Source: Dentipellis sp. KUC8613
Taxonomy: Eukaryota; Basidiomycota; Agaricomycetes; Russulales; Hericiaceae
NCBI GenBank assembly: GCA_002286715.1
Contig: NSJX01000035.1
Location: 62,001 to 126,000 of the forward strand
DNA length: 64,000 nucleotides
Direction: 5' to 3'
Below, piece by piece: positions 17,914-60,002 of this stretch (position 1 is the first letter of the stretch; every line of letters starts with the position of its first letter). Both the position numbers and the translations under genes were made by a program. A model generated the notes under the pieces. It had not been told where the DNA came from and made no database searches. It saw only the letters and a list, made by a program, of their open reading frames with translations.

Positions 17914-17920
17914 AAAGAGA

Positions 17921-18151
17921 AGAGCTCGTTGCATTGTGTCTGTGTTGCCCGGTTAGCACTGTGTGATGAGAGATAGTCGGCACGCGACGCACCTGTGACT
18001 CTCGACAAAGCGAGACACAGTGCCATAGACTGCCTCTGCGCCTTCTGGTTGTTCATCACACCACAGAGGGAAACATTCAGAGAAGTCTTCATAGCTAGGT
18101 AGCGCATCCGTCACCCGTTCTAACGCGCTCAGATAATCACTACTCACGTCC
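17921..18151 (-). repeat. Inverted, displaced fragment of NNF1 (intron 1, exon 2, intron 2, start of exon 3)
   Basis: About 230 bases are nearly identical, in reverse orientation, to 23383-23617 inside the intact NNF1 gene. The copied part starts exactly at the GGACGTGAGT exon 1/intron 1 border. Because intron 1 happens to be open in this frame it reads through into exon 2, giving a false continuous frame joined to the NmrA-like remnant. Confidence 0.85.
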
Positions 18152-18440
18152 GAAAATGGGCCCGTCATTGTGAGGAGGTACGGCATCCCCAGCTCCCTCA
18201 GCTCCAACTGGAGCGGACGCTTGGTCCTCAATATGCCCGGCGCGTCCGTCGCAACTGTGTCGTCGGCGCGCCGTAATCGGATGGAACAAAGAAGCACACG
18301 CTCGTGGCCTTCGCGGCGCGCGCGAGGAGTGGCTGCACGTACAGCTCAAGGTGCGAGACGGTCGAGAGGAGGACGTCAGTGCCGCTTAGGAAGTAGTCAA
18401 CGGCGGGTGCGAGAGTGAGCTGTGAGGAGCTCAGAGCCAT
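18146..18440 (-). pseudogene. NmrA-like/NAD(P)-binding protein remnant, frameshifted
   Basis: The frame from ATG 18440 reads VDYFLSGTDVLLSTVSHLEL ... SVCFFVPSDYG, then loses frame near 18270 and resumes in another frame as GILRTKRPLQLELRELGMPY-LLTMTGPFSD. FFVPSDYG and the ELGMPYLLTMTGPF block are typical of NmrA-like redox-sensor/dehydrogenase-like proteins. The GxxGxxG nucleotide-binding N-terminus and the C-terminal half are missing; the latter is replaced by the inverted NNF1 fragment. A dead fragment is the simplest reading. Confidence 0.7.
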
Positions 18441-18691
18441 TGTTCAGAGGGTAATGCCGATATTCTGAGGGTGGCCTCCAAAGGACATTCATAGTGGACC
18501 GTTCTGGCCGTCAACAAAAACAATTCAGAAAAGAAGAATGCTCGGCACAGTGTGTGGTCATCAATCGACCAACATGGCATTAGATCGTTCAAAATATATA
18601 GATGCGGCCGCGATCGATATTGGACAATGGGAGATATGCTGAGATGTGGGCGCGGCCACATCTCGGCATGTGCTGCTGATACAATGAGGTT

Positions 18692-18726
18692 AGACAAAGG
18701 GACGTCCACAGGCCACAATGACGAAT
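18692..18726 (+). promoter_or_regulatory. Upstream element conserved in all three FunK1 genes
   Basis: About 35 bases containing GTCCACAGGCCACAATGACG are conserved at 37643-37677 and, inverted, at 44421-44455, each upstream of a FunK1 start codon. A TATATAA follows at about 18741. The wider 5' flank is also similar, so part of this is shared ancestry rather than proven function. Confidence 0.5.
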
Positions 18727-18856
18727 TTCAATTTACCGTGTATATAATACTGCAGCTCATCGCTCACTGTCCCATCGCTCACCCGCTCCCTCACCCCACC
18801 CCTCTACCCCCTCCACTTCGTCCTCATTGACACTCCTCACATCTTGAATACATACG

Positions 18857-21642
18857 ATGGCCCCCAAACCGCGCAAGGGCTCGTCTCGTGCATCTGTCGA
18901 CCACGGACCAGACATTCCGCCTTCAGGCGAACGTTTGATCAAGCCCATTCCCCGCAGGAACGATAGCGCCGCGCACGTAGGGGACGACGAGGTCGGCGAC
19001 ATTGGCAGCAGCTCAGCCATTGCTAGCACGAGTCTGCCGGCGCCTACTCCCTCCGAAGTTCCGGCAGTTACCGAAAATTCAACCTCAGCGGCCGTCACAC
19101 CTGCAGACGCCCCGCCACTCGACCGTGTGGCGCCAACATCTCAACGGTTGAACACCATGGTGTCCGACACGCTCGCCTCCAGCGTCGGGTTCTCTTCCGG
19201 AACCATACTGCTCGACTATGTTAAGGAGAAGTTATGCGAGGATTCGTCCAGCGCCTTTGTTGGTCCAATGAAGGCTAGGGATTTTCTCGAGGCCTTCGTG
19301 CCTCCTCCGCCGACGCCACAAGGTGGGCAGCAGAGGGTGATGCCCGAAGTGTCGTTCAAGCACATGTACGAGGCAACCAACGAAATTCAGATGTATTCTC
19401 CCTATGTGAGTCATTTGTAACGGTCTTTCCATTCTCATTGACGAACATGGAACTCCAGATCAAGATCTGCGAGCAACTCGACGAAGATCACACCATGAAA
19501 TACTACGATACCCATGCCACCAACGACTCTCATACTGCTCCTCCTGGCGCACCCTCTAGGGAGGGTCTGAGTCCGGACATCATGACATTCCACAAGGACA
19601 GGATACCGCAGGACGACGCTCCCACGGATTTCACTGTCGCGGACCGGGCAGACGAGTTCAAATTTAGCATCAGTGTCGACCCTTTCGACGACAAGCCTAA
19701 CAAAAGCAAATATCCGTTTGAGGCTTGCAGCAAAGCGGGGAAGAGCTCTCGGGCCCAGATCACGGCTTACGCCGCGGCCATGCTCGAGCTCCAGTTCCGC
19801 ACATTCGTGTTCTCAGTCCTCGCCATGGGGAAATACGTGCGTCTGATCCGCTGGGATCGGTCTGGAGCTATTGTTACGGAGGCTTTCAACTATCAGGAGG
19901 ACCCGGAGCCTCTTGCGCAATTCCTCTGGCGGTACAACTTTCTTTCTCGTGCTCAGCGTGGCTTCGACGAGTCGGTCAAAGTGATTGAGGCCACGGACGA
20001 CACTCACGACTTGCCCGAGGCTCGGAAAGCGCTGGCGGACTACATGCCCTCGAATTCGGACCTGTATCTGCTCAGGATGATACCCTTGGACATGTCTTCT
20101 CCGCCAACAAATCAGCCCTCGCCCCCTTCGGCTGACACATCCGCTAGCTTGGATAGTCCGGCGGAACCTTCGGCGGAACCTGATATGTCCGTCAAGTACT
20201 ACTATGCACAGAAAACCAGCTTGAGCAATGGCTGGGACTACTATGTGACTGCGCCGACCATGAGCGACCGTGGTCCTTTCGGTCGGACGACGCGCTCGCT
20301 CTACGTCTTCAACAGGATCACGAAGACTGTCCATCATCTGAAGGACACAAACAGGATCATGAGTTCGACGCAATCTGTGGAACACGAAACGATCAACGAG
20401 CTGGGCGAGAAGAAGGTCAGAAACATCGGGACTGTGCACGCGGCATGGGACGTTGCGCCCTGGGGCAAGTGCTACGACACCGTTACCCCAACATTCTGCG
20501 ATGGCGAGAAGATCGATGCTGCATTCGCTTCAGCTGAGGGAAGGTGGTATCTAGCAAAGCGGGTGTATCGCGTGTACAGGCTGATTACGAATGAGCTGGG
20601 GACACCGATCTGGAAGTTCAAGAACTGGGAGCAGGTGATGCGGGTGATGATAGATACCTTTGAAGGTACGTCGGAACGTTCTTTTTAAAGCTTCCCGCAG
20701 ACATTGACTTTGAATCTATCGGTAGCACTCGATGACGCTGAGAAGGCAGGATGGCGCCATCGCGACGTGAGCGCTGGGAACATCATGATCTGCGGTGATC
20801 GCGGGCTACTCATCGACTGGGACGCCAGTCAGAGGTCCAAAGACATGAACAAGCCGAGCGAGACGAGAGTCCCAGAGCTGACTGGGACGTGGCAATTTAT
20901 GTCACTCCGCCGGCTGCGTAAGATTGACGGACGCCATGACGCTGTGGATGACATGGAGTCCGTGTTCTGGGTGCTCCTTTGGCTGGCCTTCAATTATGGC
21001 GTCCACTCGCTGGATCCGGACCAACTCAAAGGTTTCCTGTATAAGATTTTCGATCAGCGCGAAGTCATCAAGGGATGTTCTGTTGGTGGGGATGGGAAGG
21101 ACGCGCTCTTCGAAAAGAAGTACCTCAACGGATACATCCCAAACCCCTTTTCGCCCCCTGGTCTACAGAAAACCCTCGAGAACTTGCATCGTACCTTTCG
21201 GGTTCGGCCTCCGCAGGAGCCTCAAGTCGCAGACATGACCAAAATAAGGGCACAGATGGAGTTGGCGAGGTACCAGAATGATCTCATGATCTACAATTAC
21301 GAGAAGGAAAATCTCAACGACTCCTCTCATCTTCGCACACTGCTGAAGGAGGCTCTCGATAACTATGATTGGCCACCGCATGGCCCGGCCGAGCACATCA
21401 TCCCCGCCGACCACGACAGATCACAAATGACGGCCCACTTGCAGAAGGCCCTTTCCGCTGGAGTTCGACAGCAGAGGGTCGCACAGCGTTCGGCATCGTT
21501 CTCACGTGAGCCTACTTCCGGTAGGGCAGGCAAGGCGAAGATCATACGGACTGATGACACAGGGGACTCGAGAAAGGTGACTCGCTATGCTCCTTTGGAC
21601 GAGAGGGACGAGGACAGGGCCAGGAAAGGGGAAAACGCCTGA
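18857..21642 (+). CDS. FunK1-type protein kinase, copy 1
   Basis: Exons 18857-19405, 19459-20665 and 20726-21642 give 890 residues. This belongs to the basidiomycete-expanded FunK1 (fungal Pkinase) family. The N-terminus is a Ser/Pro/Asp-rich tail, the middle exon carries the N-lobe-like region with conserved LIRWDRSGAIVTEAF and FLWRYNFLSRAQRGFD, and exon 3 has the catalytic loop HRDVSAGNI (D599, N604) followed by LIDWDAS (D616) in place of DFG, then GTWQFMSLRRLR. The residues that coordinate ATP-Mg are thus present in an atypical form. A basic C-terminal tail follows. Family members are plentiful in mushroom genomes and their substrates are unknown. Two relatives lie at 37816-40577 and 41490-44302. 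Confidence 0.92.
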
Positions 21643-23160
21643 GCCTCTCGCGCGGGGGAGGTTCTCTACACGTATCTATCATCCATCTTACATTTATTGA
21701 CACTTACTTGCTGCTTCGTTCATGAGCATCGTAACTGGTCTGTCGCTTTCCTTCTAGTTTTGTTTTGTTTTGTTTTTGTGGAAGATACCCGCTGCGCGGA
21801 AGATACCTGTAGACTAGACACTCTGTAAAATTTACAACATGTGGACTACATTTCCCGAGGGATGATTTGCTCAATTTCTGTGCTCAGGCTTCACATGCAA
21901 CGTGATTGGGCAACGCAGGCAGATAACCACTCCTGCGGCTACCGAGTCACTAAGTGTTCTCGAGCTTTCATCGCATCGTATGTCCATCTTCGTGCTCCCT
22001 CCGCCGGACATCCAATTAAAATATTAACACTAACGACACTATTATTTCTTGTAGTGGCTTCCCCTGCAAGTCTTGTGAAGCCCCTCTCCCGTCAAGAATG
22101 ACACTGGCTAACTTCGACTTCGACTGCATGGAGAAGGTCATCCAGACCGGCGCGCTCTCCTGCCAGCGGCGGGCGCGATCAATCTCGCACTCGTATGCAA
22201 GCGGTTGAGGCTTCCCACCTACAACCCCATTCTGTGAAAGCGCACGACTTCAGCTAGATAAGTATAGCAACAATATATTGCACGTACACGTCTCGCGCGC
22301 CTGCAGAGCAAACTGCGCATCGTGAACTAGGTTCCATTGCACGGCCGATGTAAATCAAAAGCGAGCCGCATTGGCAGGACGTAGATGAGCTGTCGGCGGA
22401 GATCACCTCTGAGTCACTCTGAGTCCTGACAATCACAAATCTCCCGAGTCCCATGTCCCAGGCGCCGTCAATGCCATCTTCAAGAAATCATTCGGCCCGT
22501 CGGTTGCCCTTTCTCCCCGCGTTCTCAGACTAAAACTAGATCGCACATGCCAGGCCGCTCGAGGGTCAGAGCTGAATCATGCATGGTGAATTTCACCTTT
22601 CTGTTCTGAGCATCCTGCGACTTATTGATAAGATGGGGTCGATTTCTTGGTTATGTAGGGATATAACGAAGAAATGTCCAGGTCACTGCCATTCGTATGA
22701 TAACCTCTAGTTGAACTTCAGACTTACCAGTATCGACCTCCAATAGGCCACCAGCTATCTTCCAGTTCATGCACACCTCGGCGTCCAGTATCCGCCTCCG
22801 AGCGATGTATTGAAGAATCCTTGGAACGCCAGATATCGGCCTCGATCTCTATGTAGCAAGGCAAGCAGCCTGATCCCGTCGTAATGCGAGAATGCGAAGG
22901 CCTCATTATTCGAGCGGGTACCGTTGTCGAAGGCAAAGGAACGGGTGTCCTGGGCTGCTGATCATCAAAATAGTGCGGGTCGATTCCCTGGTGGTGAAGT
23001 CATGTTTCCGTTATGTAGGTGGCCATAGGGCGCCACTGGTCTCGTTGGATTCTGTGAGACTATCTGTATTTCGTCTGGAAGAGAAGGAAAGTACTGCATA
23101 GTCCCGAAGCCCGTTGTTGGGGCTTGAGGGACACCTAGTTCGACGATGTAGCGAGTTTGA
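21643..23160. other. Intergenic, with T/G-rich 3' flank of the kinase
   Basis: The kinase 3' flank has a TTTTG tandem run near 21755-21775. Around 22050-22200 there is a short coding-like trace (NFDFDCMEKVIQTGALSC) that cannot be extended in frame. Nothing else is supported. Confidence 0.4.
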
Positions 23161-23235
23161 AGAGTTCAAAGGCTAGAGATTGAAATTTTTGAACACCGCG
23201 TTTGAAGGATCATGTGACCGTTTTCCAACAAACGC
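23161..23235 (+). repeat. NNF1 upstream region, copy of 17841-17913
   Basis: Partner of the direct repeat near the NmrA-like pseudogene; here it occupies the position expected of the NNF1 promoter. Confidence 0.7.
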
Positions 23236-23288
23236 GGCGCGTAATCTTGGCCTTCAATTTGAAGCTTTTCAGCACATTGTGTTGCCAG

Positions 23289-24122
23289 ATGGCCACCAAC
23301 CCGACGGTACAGACAGGAAGTCAACGCTGGACGCACTTCTATTCTGCTCTCCAGCTTGCTATACAACGAGCTGGTCACAAATGGACGTGAGTAGTGATTA
23401 TCTGAGCGCGTTAGAACGGGTGACGGATGCGCTACCTAGCTATGAAGACTTCTCTGAATGTTTCCCTCTGTGGTGTGATGAACAACCAGAAGGCGCAGAG
23501 GCAGTCTATGGCACTGTGTCTCGCTTTGTCGAGAGCCACATCACGGTGCGTCGCGTGCCGACCATCTCTCATCACACAGTGCTAATCGGGCAACACAGAC
23601 ACAATGCAACGAGCTCTTTGCGACTTACGATGTCAAGAATAATGTAGACAAACTTCACGAGGCTGTCACAGAGGCTCGCGCACGAAAGCGACGCGGTGAA
23701 ACGGGGAAAGACGTGTGGAGAGAAGACTTGGACCCAAGGAGTGCGGTTCGCGCAAGGGTGGTACCTGTGTTGGAGGCGGAGCGGGATCGACTGAAGGATC
23801 AGTTGACTAAGGTATGACACTCTACATTCATTCTTACTTGTGTTCACCTAAATAATATGGCCTAGATGCGGAACCAGAATGCGGAGCTTCGGAAGACGGT
23901 GCAGGCCCATGCGAGGGAACGGAAAGAGATGGACGAGAAAACTGCTGAAATTCTGAATTTCATAGACGAAGTTAGACATCCTGTCGTCGCTCACATAGAC
24001 TCTTCTAATTCCTCTTTTCTCTTCAGGTTTACGCAAAATGGAAAGACTTGCCTATGTCCGACATGCGAAATTGGGCTCTGATCAAGGCCGAAGCTCAGAA
24101 TACGATGGCTCCTCCATCATGA
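23289..24122 (+). CDS. NNF1: Kinetochore MIND complex subunit Nnf1
   Basis: Exons 23289-23386, 23440-23545, 23599-23811, 23866-23970 and 24027-24122 give 205 residues, close to yeast Nnf1 (201). The order of features matches the family: an N-terminal helix (WTHFYSALQLAIQRAGHKW), the YEDFSECFP block, then TQCNELFATYDVKNNVDKLH and a coiled coil rich in Glu/Arg (LEAERDRLKDQLTKMRNQNA) to the end. Nnf1 is part of the Mis12/MIND complex linking centromeric chromatin to the Ndc80 complex. All phases close with introns of 53-56 bases. The family call rests on motif layout and size, not on a search. A long open frame that includes intron 1 exists but is read-through. Confidence 0.8.
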
Positions 24123-37815: not shown

Positions 37816-40577
37816 ATGGCCCCGAAACCGCGCGAGGGCTCGTCGCGTGCATCCGTCGACCGCCGCCCAAAAATTCCACATTCAGACGAACTTTTTATCG
37901 ACCCCATTCCTCGCAGGAACGATAGGTCTGCCCGCGTAGGAGACGACGAGGTCGGCGGCAGCCTGAGCGGCTCAGCTTCACCAAGCACGAGTCAGCCGGC
38001 GCCTAGTACCTCCGAAACGTCGGCAGTATCCGAGGATTCAATCTCAGCGGCACAGACAGAAGATGCCCTCCCGCGCGACAGTGCACAAACACGCTCACAC
38101 TTGAACGCCATGGTGTCTGACGAGCTGAACGCTACCGATGGAGGATATTCTTCCGAACCAATGCCACTAGACTCTGTGAAGGCGAAGATTTGCGGGCAGG
38201 CGTGTGGCGCGTTTGTTGGTCCAATGAAGCCTAGTGAGTTTCTCGAGGCTTTCGTGCCTCCTCCGCTGGCGCTGGAAGACGGACGGCAGAGGACAATTCC
38301 TAGTATTTCGTTCGAGAAGATTTCCAAAGCGACCAATGAATTCGAAATGTGTTCAGAATATGTGAGTATCTTCTGATTTTCTTTTCACTCTTTACTAATG
38401 AATGTGGAATTCCAGATCAAAGTCTGCGAGCAACTTGACGAAGATCATATCATGAGATACTACAATACCCATGCTACACCCGATCCACGCGCTGACCCTA
38501 TGGAAGCTCCTTTGAGGGAGGATACAAGTCCAGGCGTCATGACATTCCACAAGGGTAGCCTTTCAAGAGCCATTTGTACCACAAATTCCTTCTCCATTGC
38601 CGAGAGGGCAGACGAGCTCAGATTTAAGACCAAGGCGGACCCTTTCGACGACGAACCTAACGAAAGCAAATATCCGTTTGAGGCAAGCAGCATACCTGGG
38701 AAAAACACTCGAGCCCAAATCACCGCCTACGCCGCGACCATGCTCGGGCTCCAGTTCCGCACATTCGTGTTCTCAGTGCTCATTGTAGGGTGTCGCGCAC
38801 GTCTGATCCGCTGGGATCGGTCTGGAGCTATCGCTACGGAGGCATTCAACTATCAGAACAACCCGGAGCCGCTTGCGCGATTCCTCTGGCGGTACAACTT
38901 TCTCTCGCGCGCTCAGCGTGGTTTCGACGAATCGGTCAGGCTGATCGAAGCCACAGACGATACTCCCGACCTATCAGAGGCTCGGAAAGCGCTGAAGGAC
39001 TACATGCCCCCGAAATCGGATCTGTATCTGCTCAGGATGATACCCCTGGCCCTGTCCTCTTCGCCACCGAACCAGCCCGTGCCGCGTCCGGATCTCTCGA
39101 CGGCGCGGCCAGATGAGCCAACATCGCTTTCAGACGTACCCGATTTATCTGCGAAGTATTATCACGCGCAGGAATCGAATTCGAGCGACGGATGGGACTA
39201 CTATGTGACTGCACCGCACACGAGTGCCCGCGGTCCTTTCGGCAGGACGACTCGGTCGCTCTACGTCTACGATCGGCTTGCAAAACGGGTGCGCCATCTG
39301 AAGGACACGAATCGACTCGTCAGCGCTATGCATTCTGTGGAACATGAGGTCATCAACGAGCTGGGCGACAAGAAGGTCAGGCATATCAGCACGGTGCACG
39401 CCGCATGGGACGTTGCGCCTGAGGGCAGATGCTACGACACCGTCACCCCGATGTTCTGCGATGACGGGAGGATCGATTCTCGCTGTGCCCCACCCGAGGA
39501 AGGGTGGTGTCAAGCAGCGCGAGTCTATCGTCCCTATAGGCTCATTACGAATGAGCTAGGAACGCCGATATGGAAGTTTCAGAATTGGGAAGAAGTGATG
39601 CGGGTGATGATTGATATATTTGAAGGTGAGTCGGAACGTCCTTTATAACAGCGTCTGCAGAAACTGATTATATCAAAAATTTCGCAGCATTGGACGACGC
39701 TGAGAAGGCCGGATGGCGGCATCGTGATGTGAGCGCCGGGAACATCATGATCTGCAACGGTCACGGGCTGCTCATTGACTGGGACGCCAGTCAAAGGTCT
39801 AAGGACATGAACAAAATGAATCAGGAACGAGTCTCAGAGCTGACTGGGACCTGGCAATTCATGTCGCTACGCCGAGTTCGTGATATTGACGGACGCCATG
39901 ACGCCGTAGATGATCTCGAGTCGGTATTCTGGGTGCTCCTCTGGCTGGCCCTCAATTTCAGCGTCCACTCGCTCCATCCTGACGAAGTCGAAGATTTCCT
40001 ATATAGGATTTTCGACCAGCGCGAAGTCATCAAGGGACGCTCTCGCGGTGGGAATGGGAAGGATGCGCTCTTTGACAAGCGATACCTCAATCAATTCATC
40101 CTAGCCCCATTTTCGCCCCTTGGTCTACAGAGAGCCCTGGAGTACTTGCATCGGACCTTTCGGGTCCGGCCGCCACCGCCTCTCCAAGTCGATGGGTTGG
40201 AAGAGGAAGATGTGGAGATGGAAATGAGCGAGTACCAGACGTCTCTCGCGAGGTACAATCGTGAAAAAGAAAGGCTTAAGGACTCCACGCATCTTCGCAA
40301 GCTGCTGCAGAAGGCTCTTGACAACTATGATTGGCCACCGCATGGTCCTGTTGAGCACATAATCCCCGTCGACCACGACGGATCACAAACGAAGGACGAC
40401 TCACAGAAGGCGGCGCAGCATTCAATGTCCTTCGCGAACGAGCCTGCTTCGAGTTGTAGGGCAGGCAGGGCGAAGATGATGCGGACTGGGGACTCAGGAG
40501 ACCCGAGAAAGGTGACACGCTATGCTACTTTGGACGAGAGGGACGAGGAAAGGAGAAAGACAGGAAAGGGTGCATGA
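37816..40577 (+). CDS. FunK1-type protein kinase, copy 2
   Basis: Exons 37816-38361, 38416-39625 and 39688-40577 give 881 residues with the same three-exon layout and phases as copy 1. Catalytic loop HRDVSAGNI and LIDWDAS are intact, as are LIRWDRSGAIATEAF and GTWQFMSLRRVR. Exon 2 is almost identical to copy 3, while the N-terminal half of exon 1 and the end of exon 3 are much more different (here EYQTSLARYNREKERLKD). This mosaic argues for gene conversion between the arms. Basic tail as in copy 1. Substrate unknown. Confidence 0.92.
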
Positions 40578-41489
40578 GCCCCTTGCGCGGCGTGCGTTAC
40601 ATATTTATCATTCGTCTCAGACATGTGCGGACATTGTATGTGTGTTCGGATGCAGCAGCTCTGTTCACTCCACCTTCGTCATCCATTCCAATCTTATATT
40701 TTGATAATGTCGGAGATACCTGTTGAGCAGCAGGTACCTGTATACCACGTATAGACCCATTCTGTAACATTTACCGAATCGGGACCCGCGAAGTTGCCAC
40801 TGGCAGCAGCTGCAGAATGCATCTTCGAGCTTCTGCAGTTGCGTGCACTGCGGGCTGCTCTTATTGTGACATTCCTCGTTTCAGTGCAGACTCCAACTTG
40901 AATACAGCGAGGACGCAAACCACATCGTACACTGCAAGTCTAAGTCAGTGGCGCCGTTGCACGCCTCAGCCCCCCCCAACTCCGTTCTCATTGCTCTGAT
41001 TTCCACTCACACTTCAGTGACGGTCACTGCGTGCCCCGTCCATTGGCCTCAGATACTGATATCCGCACGAGCAAAGAGGCCTTCTTCCCATTCGCGCGAT
41101 ATGACGGGCCCGGGCTCGCGTTATTGCTGCATCCGAGGCAATCCGTGGCAGCTCAGCAGTCGCAGGAAAAGTTATCTTGCTGCGTCGCTGACCAAAACTC
41201 ATCATCTTGTCGCCAGCATGATGCAGAGCCTGAGCGCAAATATCGAGCAAACCCCAGTATCTCTCAGGCAATCGGCGCCCGTACTTCCCATGGTGTAAAT
41301 GTTACAGGATTAATATACTTAGTCTACAGATATCTTCTGCACAGCGGGTATCGTCTACAGAAACAAAACAAGACTAGAAGGAAGGCGACAGACCAATCAT
41401 GATGCCCATGAACGAAGAGGAGAATAAGTGTCAACAAGTATGAGATAGACGATAGATCACGTGCAGGCTACGTCCCACACGCAAGAGGC
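40578..41489. other. Spacer at the centre of the FunK1 inverted repeat
   Basis: No gene. The right part (about 41290-41400) resembles, inverted, the 3' flank of FunK1 copy 1 (about 21720-21840) with its AACAAAAC/TTTTG run, so copy 3 shares its 3' flank with copy 1 rather than with copy 2. Confidence 0.6.
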
Positions 41490-44302
41490 TCATATGCTTT
41501 CTCCTTTCTTTCTCCTCGCCTCGTCCCTCTCCTCCAAAGTAGCGTAGCGTGTCACTTTTCTCGAGTCTCCCGCGTCCCCAGTCCGCATCATCTTCATCCT
41601 GCCTGCGCGACGACTCGGAGAAGTAGGCTCGTTCGAAAAGGACATCGAATGCTGCGCAGTGCCAATCCTCTGTTGCTGAGCTCCAGAGAACACGGTCTGC
41701 TCAGGCTGCACGTCGGCCGTCATTTGTGCTCCGTCGTGGTCGGCGGGGATACCGTGCTCGACAGGACCGTGCGTTGGCCAAGTATAGTTGTCGAGAATAT
41801 CCTGCAACAGCTTGCGAAGATAATCGGAGTCCTTGAGGTTTTCTTTTTCGTATTCGCAGATCATAAGAGCAATCTGGTACCTCTCCATCTCCATCAGTGC
41901 CCTTTCCTTGCTCATGCATGCAGTTTGAGGATCTGGTGGAGGCTGGGCCCGAAAAGTACCATGCAACCTTTCCAGGACTCTCTGTAGACCGTCCGGTGAA
42001 AAGGGTGTTGGGATGTATCCATTGAGGTACCGCGCGTCGAAGAGCGCATCCTTCCCATTCCCACCGCGAGAGCGTCCCCTGATGACTGTGCGCTGGTCGA
42101 AAATCCTATACAGGAAATCTTCGACTTCGTCAGAATGGAGCGAGTGGACGCTGAAATTGAGGGCCAGCCAGAGGAGCACCCAGAATACCGACTCGAGATC
42201 ATCTATGGCGTCATGGCGTCCGTCAATATCACGAACTCGGCGTAGCGACATGAATTGCCAGGTCCCAGTCAGCTCTGAGACTCGTTCCTGATTCATTTTG
42301 TTCATGTCCTTAGACCTTTGACTGGCGTCCCAGTCAATGAGCAGCCCGTGACCGTTGCAGATCATGATGTTCCCGGCGCTCACATCACGATGCCGCCATC
42401 CAGCCTTCTCAGCGTCATCCAATGCTGCGAAATTTTTGATATAATCAGTTTCTGCAGACGCTGTTATAAAGGACGTTCCGACTCACCTTCAAATATATCA
42501 ATCATCACCCGCATCACTTCTTCCCAATTCTGAAACTTCCATATCGGCGTTCCTAGCTCATTCGTAATGAGCCTATAGGGACGATAGACTCGCGCGGCTT
42601 GACACCACCCTTCCTCGGGTGGGGCACAGCGAGAATCAATCCTCCCGTCATCGCAGAACATCGGCGTGACGGTGTCGTAGCACCTGCCCTCAGGCGCAAC
42701 GTCCCATGCCGCGTGCACCGTGCTGACATGCCTGACCTTCTTCTCGCCCAACTCGTTGATGACCTCATGTTCCACAGAATGCATAGCGCTGACGAGTCGA
42801 CTCGTGTCCTTCAGATGGCGCACCCGTTTTGCAAGCCGATCGTAGACGTAGAGCGACCGAGTCGTCCTGCCGAAAGGACCACGGGCACTCGTGTGCGGTG
42901 CAGTCACATAGTAATCCCATCCGTCGCTCGAATTCGATTCCTGCGCGTGATAGTACTTCGCAGATAAATCGGGTACGTCTGAAAGCGACGTTGGCTCATC
43001 TGGCCGCGCCGTCGAGAGATCCGGACGCGGCACGGGCTGGTTCGGTGGCGAAGAGGACAGGCCCAGAGGTATCATCCTGAGCAGATACAGATCCGATTTC
43101 GGGGGCATGTAGTCCTTCAGCGCTTTCCGAGCCTCTGATAGGTCGGGAGTATCGTCTGTGGCTTCGATCACCCTGACAGATTCGTCGAAACCACGCTGAG
43201 CGCGCGAGAGAAAGTTGTACCGCCAGAGGAATCGCGCAAGCGGCTCCGGGTTGTTCTGATAGTTGAATGCCTCCGTAGCGATAGCTCCAGACCGATCCCA
43301 GCGGATCAGACGTGCGCGACACCCTACAATGAGCACTGAGAACACGAATGTGCGGAACTGGAGCCCGAGCATGGTCGCGGCGTAGGCGGTGATTTGGGCC
43401 CGAGTGTTCTTCCCAGGTATGCTACTTGCCTCAAACGGATATTTGCTTTCGTTAGGTTCGTCGTCGAAAGGGTCCGCCTTGGTCTTAAATCTGAGCTCGT
43501 CTGCCCTCTCGGCAATAGAGAAGGAATTTGTGGTACAAATGGCTCTTGAAAGGCTACCCTTGTGGAATGTCATGACGCCTGGACTTGTATCCTCCCTCAA
43601 AGGAGCTTCCATAGGGTCAGCGCGTGGATCGGGTGTAGCATGGGTATTGTAGTATCTCATGATATGATCTTCGTCAAGTTGCTCGCAGACTTTGATCTGG
43701 AATTCCACATTCATTAGTAAAGAGTGAAAAGAAAATCAGAAGATACTCACATATTCTGAACACATTTCGAATTCATTGGTAGCTTCGGACATCGTCTCGA
43801 GCGAAACACTGGGCATTGTCTTCTGTCGCCCGTCCTCCAGCGCCAGCGGAGGAGGCACGAAAGCCTCGAGAAACTCACTAGGCTTCATTGGACCAACAAA
43901 CGCGCCACGCGCCTGCCCGCAAATCTTCGCCTTCACAGAGTCGAGTGGCATTGGTTCGGAAGAATATCCTCCATCGGTGGCGTTCAGCTCGTCAGACACC
44001 ATGGTGTTCAAGTGTGAGCGTGTTTGTGCTACATTGTCGCGCGGCAGCGCGTCCGAGTCCGCTTCCCCCGTCGCTGGGATTGAGCTGTCGGAAACTGCCG
44101 ACACCTGGCAGGTCCTAGGCGCCAGCAGACTTCCGCTTGGTGAAGCTGAGCAGCTCAGGCTGCCGACCTCGTCATCCCCTACGCGCACAGTGCTATCCCT
44201 CCTGCGAGGAATGGGCTCGATAAAAAGTTCGCTTGAAGGTGGAATTTCTGGGCCGCGGTCGGCAGATGCACGCGACGAGCCCTTGCGCGGTTTCGGGGTC
44301 AT
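41490..44302 (-). CDS. FunK1-type protein kinase, copy 3
   Basis: Exons 44302-43751, 43696-42487 and 42424-41490 give 898 residues. Same layout as the other two copies; HRDVSAGNI and LIDWDAS are intact. It is nearly identical to copy 2 through exon 2 and the first part of exon 3, then switches to a C-terminal sequence (MEMERYQIALMICEYEKENL) and 3' flank closer to copy 1. It lies opposite to copy 2, 3' ends facing each other. Confidence 0.92.
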
Positions 44303-55568: not shown

Positions 55569-55987
55569 GATGGGCTCGCTGGCGCCTCAAAGGGCGTGCT
55601 AGTACGCAGGCGAGAAGATTGAAGGAGGAGGAGGAGAGGTAGAGGGATGGAGGAGGAGTTGATTGAGATGTAGGTTCGCGGTCGATAGCGGGCAGACTGC
55701 CGCGGCTGCACTGAGCGCTATAGCGGCACAACCTGACCCCGGCCACCGCTCTCTGCACCGCTCGTCCGACCGTCCGACCGTTGACAAAATCCACTTATCT
55801 GGTTTATTTATCCCATTCAAGCCCTGCTTACATGGTACTCCATGTCGCTGCACAATTACTCGCAGCTCTGTAAAAGGTTGATTTCTGCTAGAACAGGACC
55901 GTACAGAGGCAATGGGAGTATAATGAGGCGAGTGCGGGGTTCCCGGGCTACTGCTCGAATTCCGCAATTATTAAAATGAAATCGCTA

Positions 55988-56026
55988 CAGTGCGTTGCAT
56001 AAGAAACTGCAGTCGACGCGTCGAGA
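55988..56026 (+). repeat. Left terminal inverted repeat of the Tc1-like element
   Basis: Begins CAGTGCGTTGCATAAGAAAC and is identical in reverse complement to 59884-59922. Confidence 0.95.
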
Positions 56027-56583
56027 TTGTTGTTTGTTCTAGCCAAAGCGTGACAATTTGAATCTCCGACACTGCAGCGGGGAGCACCCACTGTCGCTTA
56101 CCAGCGTCCGTGGCTTCAAACTGTACTTATGCACGCTCCATCGTGTCAGCGATTCCAGGGACTCTGCGTGCTGAAGAAGCGAAAGCCGTCCTCGCCGATA
56201 GACTCGGTCTTTGTTTCAGGTATCACTTCTGCCCTTGGACCTTCGTTGGGAGGTCGGCCATACCGGCTCGCATAAAGACGGCGATGGACAGATTCGTCGT
56301 CGTAGCCGACTCAATGTTGCCAACTGACAAAGGATTTCTAGGCCTTTTAGTTCCAGCAATATACAACCATTCAATGATGTTGATCGATTGGTGAGCCTCA
56401 GCCGACGGACACTGCGGACAATCGAAGATTTTTGCTTGGCGCTTTTCTGGGGTGCACGGGAGACTCGGCGAACAGGGTGCACGGGCAACTGGTGGGTGTA
56501 GCGCATGGGGTATAAAGAGGGCAAGCACTGACCACTGCTCTTCAGCTTTGCGAGCAGAGCAGATTCACTCCACCTTCTTCGAT

Positions 56584-58634
56584 ATGACGGGCATCACCAT
56601 CCGCATTCCTGGTCGCTCCGCAGCTGCATCCGGCACGAGCACGACTGATGTTCAACCAGTTTCGAATCGTGAGCAGGCCGCGAAGTCTGTGGATCGAGGG
56701 ACTCCCAATGTTCGTGCAGGCAAAGAGAACATTGCCCCGCTTCCATCCGATGTCTGGCTCCAAAACCCTGCTTGGATTGGTAGGGATTCTACCGTTACTC
56801 TAACCCCCGTCTTTTCTGAATTGTTTTTTTTGCAGACGGTGCTGTGAACCCACCGCAGTTCTATATGTCGCAGGCCCAAATGGTCGACGCATTACAAGCG
56901 GCCGCCAACGCTGGGATCCCGATCCCTCCGGGGCCTGGTGCTGCGATGCTCGCAGCTGCTCGGGCAGGAGATGCGCCTGTGTCTGCTGCAACCGCGAGGC
57001 CGGCCAATCGCCCGAGCGAACAGGTTTGCGACACAGTCAACACTTCGGCGGGTATTGCGCAGAAATCAGGTACGTATACGAGCCGCTCTGGAATATGTAC
57101 TCTCATTGCAAGTTTTTGCCGACAGCTGCAGAGCCCACTAACAAGGCGTTAGACCCTTCGCTCTCGGCGGGTAATAGCGGTAAGAGTTATCACTTTACAT
57201 ACCGCTGCAGCAATTGATAGCATTTGTCTCAGTGCTCGGCGATGCTGGGTATCTTGTGTATGTTACACACACACTGTCAGTGCTCGACAACACTCCTGCA
57301 GTCCGCGGTTCGAAGTCCGCACCCAAGAAGGTTAAGACCCCAACGACGAAGTTCGAGTACATTGACGTGCAGAACATTTCGCGCGTCAAATTTTTCCAAG
57401 CATGCCTGAGGGTCCATGATTTGGCCGATCACTTCAGTGCTGGTGTCCATTCTGGGCCAGCCTTCAAGTTATGGTGGACAGGGTCGAAGTACGTGCCTAC
57501 ACATCTCAATATTAATTCACAGATCTGACGATATAATGTAGTGGTGGTAAGGCAGGGGCTCTGACAATTGAGACCGATCGCGACTTTGCGCTCGCACAGA
57601 GCGCTCTGCTTCAGAAAAATAAGAAAACAGTGGCTGTATCGGTTGAGTTTGATACCGACCAGATGAACGGGTTTCGCATCCGTCGGCAGGTGAATATTGA
57701 TATGTATTTCGCATGGCCTCCTGGTATTCTGACGACATATTGACAGGGCCTTCTTCCCAGTCCTACGCAGGATCCCACAGACGAGCTCGCCTTTGGAACC
57801 AAGGTAAGTTTAATCTCATGTATCTACTATATCTGTTTTATATGACCCGCATGATAGGTACCCAACGTCGATGCGTTTAGCGACCAGTCGCAGATCCACG
57901 GCGCCATCATTCTCGAGCTCAAAGCCAAATGGCCATGCCAACAGCATCTCGGAGAGCACGGCGAGGATGGATTCTGCTACGTTACCGCAAATGCAGAACA
58001 CATCCGGTTGAATGCCCGGAAGTTGAAGTTCTGGGCTGCCGCCATTGTACGTGTCTCTTTCTTCGACAAAAATATGACAAATTTAAACATCTTTCAGGCT
58101 GCGCATGAAGCTACAAAGAATGAGCCGCCCAACACGGTTGAATTTGACGGCTTCCGTGATGGCCGTCTATCAATGGCACGGCCACGTGGTCGTTCCGGCC
58201 CTCATCCAGCTAGCTCATCCAGCCAGTCCAGCCCTGGCGTTGACACCTCGCAGCTGCTCATGGCTGCCATCCTGTCGAACATGAACAACAAGCGCTCACG
58301 GTCACGGTCGCCGGAAGAAATGCGGACACCATCGACATCACGCGCATTTGCAGTCCCTCTTTCTCCACCTCCCGCCGCAGGCACCGAGCTTCATACATGC
58401 CTCACGGACTTCCTGGAGGCTAAAGGAATTGATTTTAGGGGGTTTGAGAATGCCCTCTTGCTCCTGGATTTTACACCTGATGTCATCCCCTTCGTCTCCA
58501 TCAGTCGCCTCTGCGAAGTGACCAATAGCGTTGAAGGCCGCGCAATCAAGTTCCAAGCGTTCTGCAAAGCATGGTCTTCACGTCAGGAAGAGAAACACTC
58601 TTATCTTGCTACGAAGAGGTCTCGTTTCACTTGA
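56584..58634 (+). CDS. Passenger protein of the Tc1-like element, function unknown
   Basis: Exons 56584-56779, 56836-57069, 57126-57179, 57281-57488, 57542-57689, 57747-57803, 57858-58046 and 58098-58634 give 540 residues with all phases closed and no stop. The N-terminus is low complexity. A folded middle part (FEYIDVQNISRVKFFQACL; FKLWWTGSNGGKAGALTIET; KKTVAVSVEFDTDQMNG) may be a beta-grasp or PB1-like fold (inference). Then IILELKAKWPCQQH, a basic linker (KRSRSRSPEEMR) and a C-terminal helical block LHTCLTDFLEAKGIDFRGFE ... ISRLCEVTNSVEG resembling a SAM-like domain. It has no transposase, nuclease or helicase motif I recognise. It ends 108 bases from the convergent transposase stop. Eight introns-worth of maintained splicing implies selection or youth. 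Confidence 0.8.
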
Positions 58635-58741
58635 CGTACTACATATTGACTTCTCTACCTACCTATTCACACTTAATTACCTATTTGCACACTCATTTTC
58701 CCATTTCACTTCACCCGACATTCGCTCCGATACAAATTTAT

Positions 58742-59811
58742 CTAGCCATACGTATAACCACAGTTTAATACCCAACCTTCTGCACTTTCGTGAGTGATAG
58801 CTGCCGCCGCACGTTCAATGAGCCATGGCCGTACTTCAGGTCGGATCGCCGCCGCCTCATGACGGCGAAGCCACGCCTTTATAGAATGGAAAGCTTGCTC
58901 AATTGGATTGAAGTCAGGAGAGTAAGGTGGGAGGTATATCAGCTTTGCACCTGGAGATTTGTGAGCGAAGGTTATCACGAGAAGACAAAAGTCATACCGC
59001 ATTCATCTTCAACAATCTGTCGAACAGCTTCATCATGATGAATCGCACAATTGTCAAGTACAATGACACTGCGCGGTCCTGGATATGGTCCAAGTTGAGG
59101 AGCCTACATCACAGACAAACATTAGCTCCTGAGCAAAGAGCACAACATGAGCCATACAAGTTCTTCGCGGATGAACTGGATGAACTTGTCCTTCGTCACG
59201 GCACCTTCGAAGATGTCAAGTGCGACGATGCCATCACAAGAGAGGGCCGGAAGTACAGAATAGCGCTGACCACGGATGAACGTTGCGCGACGAACGCATG
59301 CCCGTCCGAGCGCGGCCCACCCATCGTCTCGTTGGTTTGTCTTGTCATCTACGCTGGATTCATCCAGCCAGATGAAATATTCGGCCGGGATATCGCCATA
59401 CTCTGCTTGCCATGTTGCACGCAACAGCTCATTACGCTCAAGAGCAGTTTTTGCGACTTGCTTTCGAGTGAGCGCCATCTGCCGAACTGCACGAGATAGC
59501 GTGGCAATCGAGACGTCAATATGCCGGTTCTCGGAGAGTTGAAGCTGTAGCTCATCTAGATATAGGCATGGGTTGGCTGATATGAGGGCAGAGAGGTAGT
59601 TCAAGTCGCCACTGTCGAGTAACCGTGGACGTCGGCGAGGGCGAGAAAACGGATTCTGGACATCGCCATAGTCGCGGTGCAGTTGTAGCACCTTGTATAC
59701 GGTCCGTTCTGAGCACCGCGCCAAAGCCGCGATCTGCGATGCTGACATGGCGTATTCCTCGTGCCAGTAAACGATGAGGCGTCGTTGTTCGACGGTGGTG
59801 TGAGGAGCCAT
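58742..59811 (-). CDS. Tc1/mariner-family transposase (DD35E)
   Basis: Exons 59811-59158, 59103-58998 and 58950-58742 give 322 residues. N-terminal paired helix-turn-helix DNA-binding part (MSASQIAALARCSERTVYKV, then RPRLLDSGDLNYLSALISAN). The DDE catalytic residues are visible: D150 in YFIWLDESSVDD, D235 in SVIVLDNCAIHHDE and E271 in YLPPYSPDFNPIEQAFHSIK, the last two 35 residues apart. The frame is intact with two introns of 54 and 47 bases, so the enzyme could be functional. Sits inside matching inverted repeats and TA duplications. Confidence 0.93.
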
Positions 59812-59883
59812 ACTCGTTCAGACTGCTGTCACGCTGTGACTGATACAGGCTTGATGTGACTATTTGGCTACTACAAACAAGAT

Positions 59884-59922
59884 TCTCGACGCGTCGACTG
59901 CAGTTTCTTATGCAACGCACTG
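59884..59922 (-). repeat. Right terminal inverted repeat of the Tc1-like element
   Basis: Mirror of 55988-56026; TA duplication follows at 59923-59924. Confidence 0.95.
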
Positions 59923-60002
59923 TAATCTAGGCCTACTTGCAAGGTAACCGAGCTCGATAAGTAACTTCGCTCCTTCGTCTTGGACATCCTCCTCCACAAA
60001 GT

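What the first reader, a model, noticed from the sequence alone, without database searches (positions are those of the whole stretch)
55988..59922. Tc1/mariner element enclosing a second, intact, unrelated gene
Within one pair of perfect 39-base inverted repeats and TA duplications lie a DD35E transposase (minus) and a 540-residue, eight-exon protein (plus) that is not a transposase. Typical Tc1 elements are 1.3-2.4 kb with one gene. Both frames are intact, so the unit may transpose as a two-gene element and the passenger could be an accessory factor, a silencing antagonist or captured cargo. The SAM-like C-terminus and RS-rich linker suggest protein or RNA contacts (inference).
Basis: partly seen in the sequence, partly recalled or inferred. 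Interest (0 to 1): 0.88.

Follow-up and report, generated by a model that had tools for sequence, protein, structure and literature searches.

The report
Two-gene Tc1/mariner transposon in a mushroom
A mushroom genome carries a small jumping element that holds, besides the usual enzyme for jumping, a second gene of unknown function, and the same kind of pairing appears in two other, only distantly related elements of that genome, so the second gene looks like a lasting working part and not a stray passenger.

Summary
A 3,935-bp element with perfect 39-nt inverted repeats and TA duplications carries an intact Tc1-like transposase (minus, 3 exons, 322 aa, DD35E) and an open eight-exon second gene (plus).

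It is probably not a one-off capture. The same genome holds two more TIR-bounded elements (3.3 and 4.1 kb) with 35-37% identical transposases and the same layout: second gene at the left, convergent transposase at the right. All three second genes have a phase-0 intron directly after a W-A-x-x-I motif. Relation of the C1 gene to the window's is significant; that of the C117 gene is likely but weaker. Five protein searches found no copy outside the three elements, at limited sensitivity.

Best reading: a lineage of two-gene Tc1/mariner elements whose second gene belongs to the transposon. Its role, probably an oligomerising partner of transposition, is inferred.

The parts
55986..56026 (+). left TA target-site duplication plus 39-nt terminal inverted repeat (similarity goes on, 90% over 70 nt, to 56055)
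59884..59924 (-). right 39-nt terminal inverted repeat plus TA (similarity over 70 nt from 59855)
56584..58634 (+). second gene, 556 aa, exons 56584-56779, 56836-57069, 57126-57179, 57233-57488, 57542-57689, 57747-57803, 57858-58046, 58098-58634
   Evidence: translation equals NCBI protein P0001 exactly
57858..58046 (+). exon 7: most of the conserved core (K-W-x-C ... C-Y ... W-A-x-x-I), followed by a phase-0 intron found at the same motif in the C117 and C1 elements
58098..58634 (+). exon 8: rest of the core, RS-rich linker, conserved C-terminal part (SAM-like by pattern only)
58742..59811 (-). Tc1-like transposase, 322 aa, DD35E, exons 59811-59158, 59103-58998, 58950-58742

Best explanation
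This is a cut-and-paste Tc1/mariner transposon with two genes of its own. The transposase (minus) recognises the 39-nt repeats and moves the element between TA sites (inferred from its family). The convergent second gene (plus) belongs to the transposon lineage and is not recent cargo: two other, only distantly related elements of the same genome carry a related gene at the same place and in the same orientation. The second protein most likely works as an oligomerising partner of transposition: the conserved core would contact DNA or transposase, and a SAM-like C-terminus, perhaps with a ubiquitin/PB1-like N-terminal part, would multimerise the complex and help to pair the two ends. In all three elements the transposase starts 113-151 nt from its own end and reads inward; the second gene starts about 170 nt (two elements) or 598 nt (window) from the other end. 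The repeats could therefore serve both genes. Shown: architecture, coding capacity, recurrence in three elements. Inferred: mobility as a unit, protein contacts, role.
For: Perfect TIRs and TA around both genes, both open. Two more TIR-bounded elements with the same layout: C117, 85-nt repeats 98% and C1, 78-nt repeats 94%, ORFs, ends starting TA-CAG in all three. Transposases only 35-37% identical. Second genes related: window family against C1, E 3.9e-6; the core profile of 15 members ranks the C1 exon first (E 4.9e-6) and the C117 exon second among the ORFs of 12 loci, and 0 of 2,000 shuffles of either protein reached its score. Phase-0 intron after W-A-x-x-I in 3 of 3 second genes. No copy outside these elements in five protein searches of the genome. 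The second-gene family is conserved over its length in 19 clusters, 18 of them named Agaricomycete fungi. SAM signal in the C1 homologue, E 0.0016.
Against: One full copy of each element only: joint movement is not shown. The full-length comparison of the window family with the C117 protein found nothing (probability 0.03%), and C117 against C1 gave only E 0.063; the C117 core exon scores E 0.83 in its search set, and it lacks the Cys/His pattern of the other two. The C1 transposase has an in-frame stop. The short TIR-sharing elements carry neither gene intact. Named species with the nearest transposases are not those with second genes. Pfam sees no SAM in the window protein. The passenger tree partly follows the host orders, as a fast-evolving host gene would too. 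Each genome search with one second-gene type missed the other two types, so diverged free-standing copies could be missed.
Confidence: 0.6

Rival explanations
1. The second gene belongs to the transposon but acts on the host or on expression (silencing antagonist, regulator, target-site tether) and is not part of the DNA reaction.
For: Same evidence for an integral gene as above; RS-rich linker and no catalytic domain. Distantly related single-gene relatives of other clades manage without a second gene (C128 element).
Against: None direct; no fold or assay was available.
Confidence: 0.22
2. Captured host cargo: a fast-evolving Agaricomycete gene family was picked up by these elements, perhaps more than once.
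For: The tree of the second gene groups Russulales (94/86) and four Boletales rows (99/100); in other species its genomic context is unknown.
Against: No free-standing copy found in this genome. Three diverged elements with gene order and orientation the same, and a shared intron after W-A-x-x-I.
Confidence: 0.12
3. Two unrelated things side by side: a smaller transposon next to or nested in another element, with the outer repeats not defining one unit.
For: The element is single-copy here, so joint movement is not shown directly.
Against: No inner repeat pair around the transposase; the same arrangement in three elements that together are about 11.4 kb of a 34.1-Mb genome (sizes; my arithmetic).
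Confidence: 0.03

Closest known systems
Tc1/mariner (IS630-Tc1-mariner) transposons of fungi
   Same: TA duplication, inverted repeats, DDE_3 transposase with helix-turn-helix, short non-autonomous relatives
   Different: Described as 1.3-2.4 kb with a single ORF (PMC4188875, passage); here 3.3-4.1 kb with a second gene
Tec and TBE elements of ciliates
   Same: Tc1/mariner-type DD34E transposase in an element with further ORFs, one of them on the opposite strand (PMC7325037, passage)
   Different: About 700-bp repeats and three ORFs, in Tec including a site-specific recombinase; here 39-85-nt repeats, two genes, no recombinase domain found in the second protein by Pfam
MarorTcMar-18 / MarorTcMar-21 of Marasmius oreades
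   Same: Mariner-type family of 3,972 bp with a freshly mobile 1,120-bp derivative (PMC9674265, passages); sizes close to 3.9 kb and about 1.0 kb here
   Different: Its gene content was not seen by me; resemblance of sizes only
Two-gene DNA transposons of other superfamilies (PIF/Harbinger with a Myb-like protein, MuDR, En/Spm; recalled)
   Same: Transposase plus a second, non-transposase protein in one element; a model for how a partner could work
   Different: Other transposase superfamilies; Pfam shows DDE_3 in the transposase and no Myb/SANT in the second protein

Membership tests
Tc1/mariner superfamily | TA target-site duplication and terminal inverted repeats | tested here: met
   TA + 39 nt identical at both ends
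Tc1/mariner superfamily | D,D,D/E transposase of the DDE_3 type with helix-turn-helix | tested here: met
   DDE_3 E 7.7e-32, HTH_23 over cut-off; 35 residues between second D and E
Tc1/mariner superfamily | 1.3-2.4 kb with one ORF (usual, not strictly defining) | tested here: not met
   3,935 bp with two genes; usual size from PMC4188875 passage
Tec/TBE | very long repeats, three ORFs | tested here: not met
   39-nt perfect, 70-nt extended repeats and two genes; definition from PMC7325037 passage
PIF/Harbinger (definition recalled) | DDE_4-type transposase with a Myb/SANT partner | tested here: not met
   DDE_3 in the transposase; no Myb/SANT match in the second protein or in its 18 relatives
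SAM-domain proteins (second protein, C-terminus) | match to a SAM profile | tested here: inconclusive
   None in the window protein; SAM_EPH E 0.0016, 18.5 bits against a cut-off of 27, in the C1 homologue; UniRef name of P0012; no structure available
Captured host gene | free-standing homologue in the host genome | tested here: not met
   None in five protein searches of the own genome; limited sensitivity
Two-gene Tc1/mariner lineage proposed here | related second gene in the same layout in other elements of the genome | tested here: met
   C117 and C1 elements; relation of the C117 gene weaker
Two-gene Tc1/mariner lineage proposed here | second gene linked to the transposase in other species | not testable with these tools
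   No fungal DNA but this genome reachable; viral contigs gave no relative of the second gene; viral and prokaryote collections gave only 27-40% transposase relatives

The most novel reading that the evidence does not exclude
Mushroom genomes hold an old lineage of Tc1/mariner transposons that depend on a dedicated partner protein encoded in the same element; many unnamed hypothetical proteins of Agaricomycetes, including the larger family to which the C117 second gene seems to belong (recalled), are then transposon genes and not host genes.
Probability: 0.45. Interest if true: 0.8.

Novelty: new variant of a known kind. Interest (0 to 1): 0.63.

Why it matters
Tc1/mariner transposases are the textbook case of a self-sufficient single-gene system. 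A lineage that keeps a second gene would show that a partner can become part of even this system, and would give a simple pair of proteins on which to test what a partner adds. It would also reclassify a family of orphan proteins across mushroom genomes as mobile-element genes. Gene catalogues that leave out transposases (a habit of JGI catalogues as I recall it; consistent with the window's own transposase being absent from the list) keep these second genes as unexplained proteins.

Tried and rejected
Recent capture of a host gene was dropped as the main reading after the C117 and C1 elements were found. Derivation of the short elements from the two-gene element by simple deletion is not supported: six of them share only up to 86 nt at the left end and 71 at the right with it, and resemble each other inside. 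Linkage in other species by matching contig lengths between protein lists: by eye, none of the 25 contig lengths equals one in the 120 rows shown (of 164); uninformative, because the window's own transposase is missing there too. Relatives of the second gene in viral contigs: none. PDB by sequence: 0 matches for two profiles. Pfam for the C117 and C1 second proteins: nothing over cut-off. Papers: the searches (and 19 for the strain name) listed none whose title or abstract start tells of a second gene in basidiomycete Tc1/mariner elements; passages were seen in PMC7325037, PMC4905642, PMC9674265 and PMC4188875, the rest as listings. The library lacks most subscription journals, and Repbase was not searchable.

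Full report
What is there. The element spans 55988-59922. Its ends are identical over TA + 39 nt and 90% alike over 70 nt. The transposase on minus has three exons, 322 residues, no internal stop, a DDE_3 domain (E 7.7e-32) and HTH_23 just over its cut-off. With introns removed, 35 residues lie between the second D and the E. The second gene on plus has eight exons; with intron 3 at 57180-57232 its product equals, letter for letter, the 556-residue protein P0001 annotated in Dentipellis sp. KUC8613.

Copies in the genome. The whole two-gene element is present once. Its ends recur in seven shorter elements with both ends recognisable: four of 1,012-1,033 bp, one of 1,479 bp, one whose ends lie 1,861 bp apart, and a 699-bp relic. 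The first six share only the ends with the window element and resemble each other inside; the 699-bp relic keeps a decayed piece of a related transposase. A further 721-bp relic on C11 has ends like those of the 699-bp one and weak transposase-profile hits. The ends have thus been used repeatedly, but the short elements are not simple deletions of the present element.

Two further two-gene elements. The window transposase finds an open relative on contig C117 (36% identity) and one on C1 (35%, one in-frame stop). Around the first lie 85-nt inverted repeats (98%) that bound 3.3 kb, around the second 78-nt repeats (94%) that bound 4.1 kb. All three elements start TA-CAG. In both, a multi-exon gene on plus fills the left part and the transposase on minus the right part. 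The C117 transposase was joined only in part (three exons, 34 residues between the second D and the E). A fourth candidate on C137 has 58-nt repeats of another sequence and transposase pieces with stops, but 2,940 bases of it read N, so it cannot be scored. C114 has a transposase fragment with no clear repeats. Of the elements of this clade found here that can be read end to end and keep most of a transposase, three of three carry a second gene.

Are the three second genes related? Window family against C1: E 3.9e-6, probability 73%. A core profile of 15 of the 19 family members, run over the ORFs of 12 loci, puts the C1 exon first (E 4.9e-6) and the C117 exon second (7.0 bits, E 0.83 in that set; the third has 5.0 bits). 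Of 2,000 shuffles of each protein none reached the observed 29.5 bits (C1) or 13.2 bits (C117); 781 and 731 of them gave any score. All three genes have a phase-0 intron directly after W-A-x-x-I. Against this, the full-length comparison with the C117 protein found nothing (probability 0.03%), C117 against C1 gave only E 0.063 over 57 columns, the Cys/His pattern of the core is missing in C117, and the splice models of C117 and C1 were chosen to keep the frames open. I hold the C1 relation as shown and the C117 relation as likely. The transposases of the window and C117 have their first two introns at matching places, by eye, in the same phases (0 and 1).

Controls. Five protein queries of the genome (window second gene, a Mycena relative, the recalled fragment, the C117 and the C1 second genes) gave no copy outside the three elements. 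Each query type found only its own element, so diverged free copies could be missed. The DDE_3 family search gave 14 places, five of them in the three elements. Of the nine others six were fetched and none has a core match above chance; three weak ones were not examined. One of the six is an intronless 314-residue transposase closely bounded by 29-nt repeats about 0.99 kb apart: a single-gene element of another clade in the same genome.

Spread. The second gene has 19 clusters at E <= 1e-3, a lower bound because only the 7,994 candidates sharing most words were scored; 18 are named Agaricomycete fungi, one is an unnamed metagenome protein. Six more pieces came with a C-terminal profile. Dentipellis is 47% identical to Hericium and 36-50% to the 18 relatives in all; the tree groups the three Russulales (94/86) and four Boletales rows (99/100), while Hygrophoropsis, also Boletales, falls elsewhere. 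That fits a transposon lineage inherited mostly within orders, or a fast host gene. Among the named rows the nearest transposases (to 68%) come from other species than the second genes. This says little, because the window's own transposase is missing from that list too.

Mechanism. Shown: the architecture and its recurrence. Inferred: the transposase works as in its family; the second protein oligomerises through a SAM-like end (best support SAM_EPH E 0.0016 for the C1 homologue, below the curated cut-off; UniRef name of P0012) and contacts DNA or transposase through the conserved core. A PB1- or ubiquitin-like fold of the N-terminal conserved part is a guess by pattern. I put about 0.85 on a true two-gene transposon and about 0.5 on a part of the second protein in the transposition reaction; the combined statement gets 0.6.

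Known kinds. Tc1/mariner elements are described as 1.3-2.4 kb with one ORF (PMC4188875, passage). Tec/TBE of ciliates are the known exception with three ORFs (PMC7325037, passage). In Marasmius oreades a 3,972-bp Mariner family has a freshly mobile 1,120-bp derivative (PMC9674265, passages); whether it has a second gene is unknown to me. Nine literature searches listed nothing that tells of a second gene in such elements of mushrooms.

Noticed in passing
L024, L025, L026, L027, L028, L029 (G000 contigs C134, C117, C96, C45, C89, C91): A family of about 1.0-1.9-kb short elements shares the ends of the window element but has an unrelated interior of its own, 65-95% alike between copies.
   Followed up: partly
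L036 2010-5338 (G000 C117) and L037 850-4964 (G000 C1): Two further two-gene Tc1-like elements, each found once as a whole; short copies of the C1 element's ends lie on C150.
   Followed up: yes
L064 2757-3744 (G000 C128): An intronless 314-residue DDE_3 transposase closely bounded by 29-nt inverted repeats, a compact single-gene element of another clade.
   Followed up: partly
L038 3303-7578 (G000 C137): Perfect 58-nt inverted repeats around transposase pieces and a run of 2,940 N; a possible fourth two-gene element that cannot be read.
   Followed up: partly
window 38083-44029: Two arms of 2,095 nt, 97% complementary, 1,757 nt apart, with further inverted pairs on both sides: a large recent inverted duplication.
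   Followed up: no
window 17920-23618: Long inverted repeats (158 nt at 99% and 74 nt at 97%) about 5.2 kb apart around ORFs that look by eye like a fungal protein-kinase gene.
   Followed up: partly
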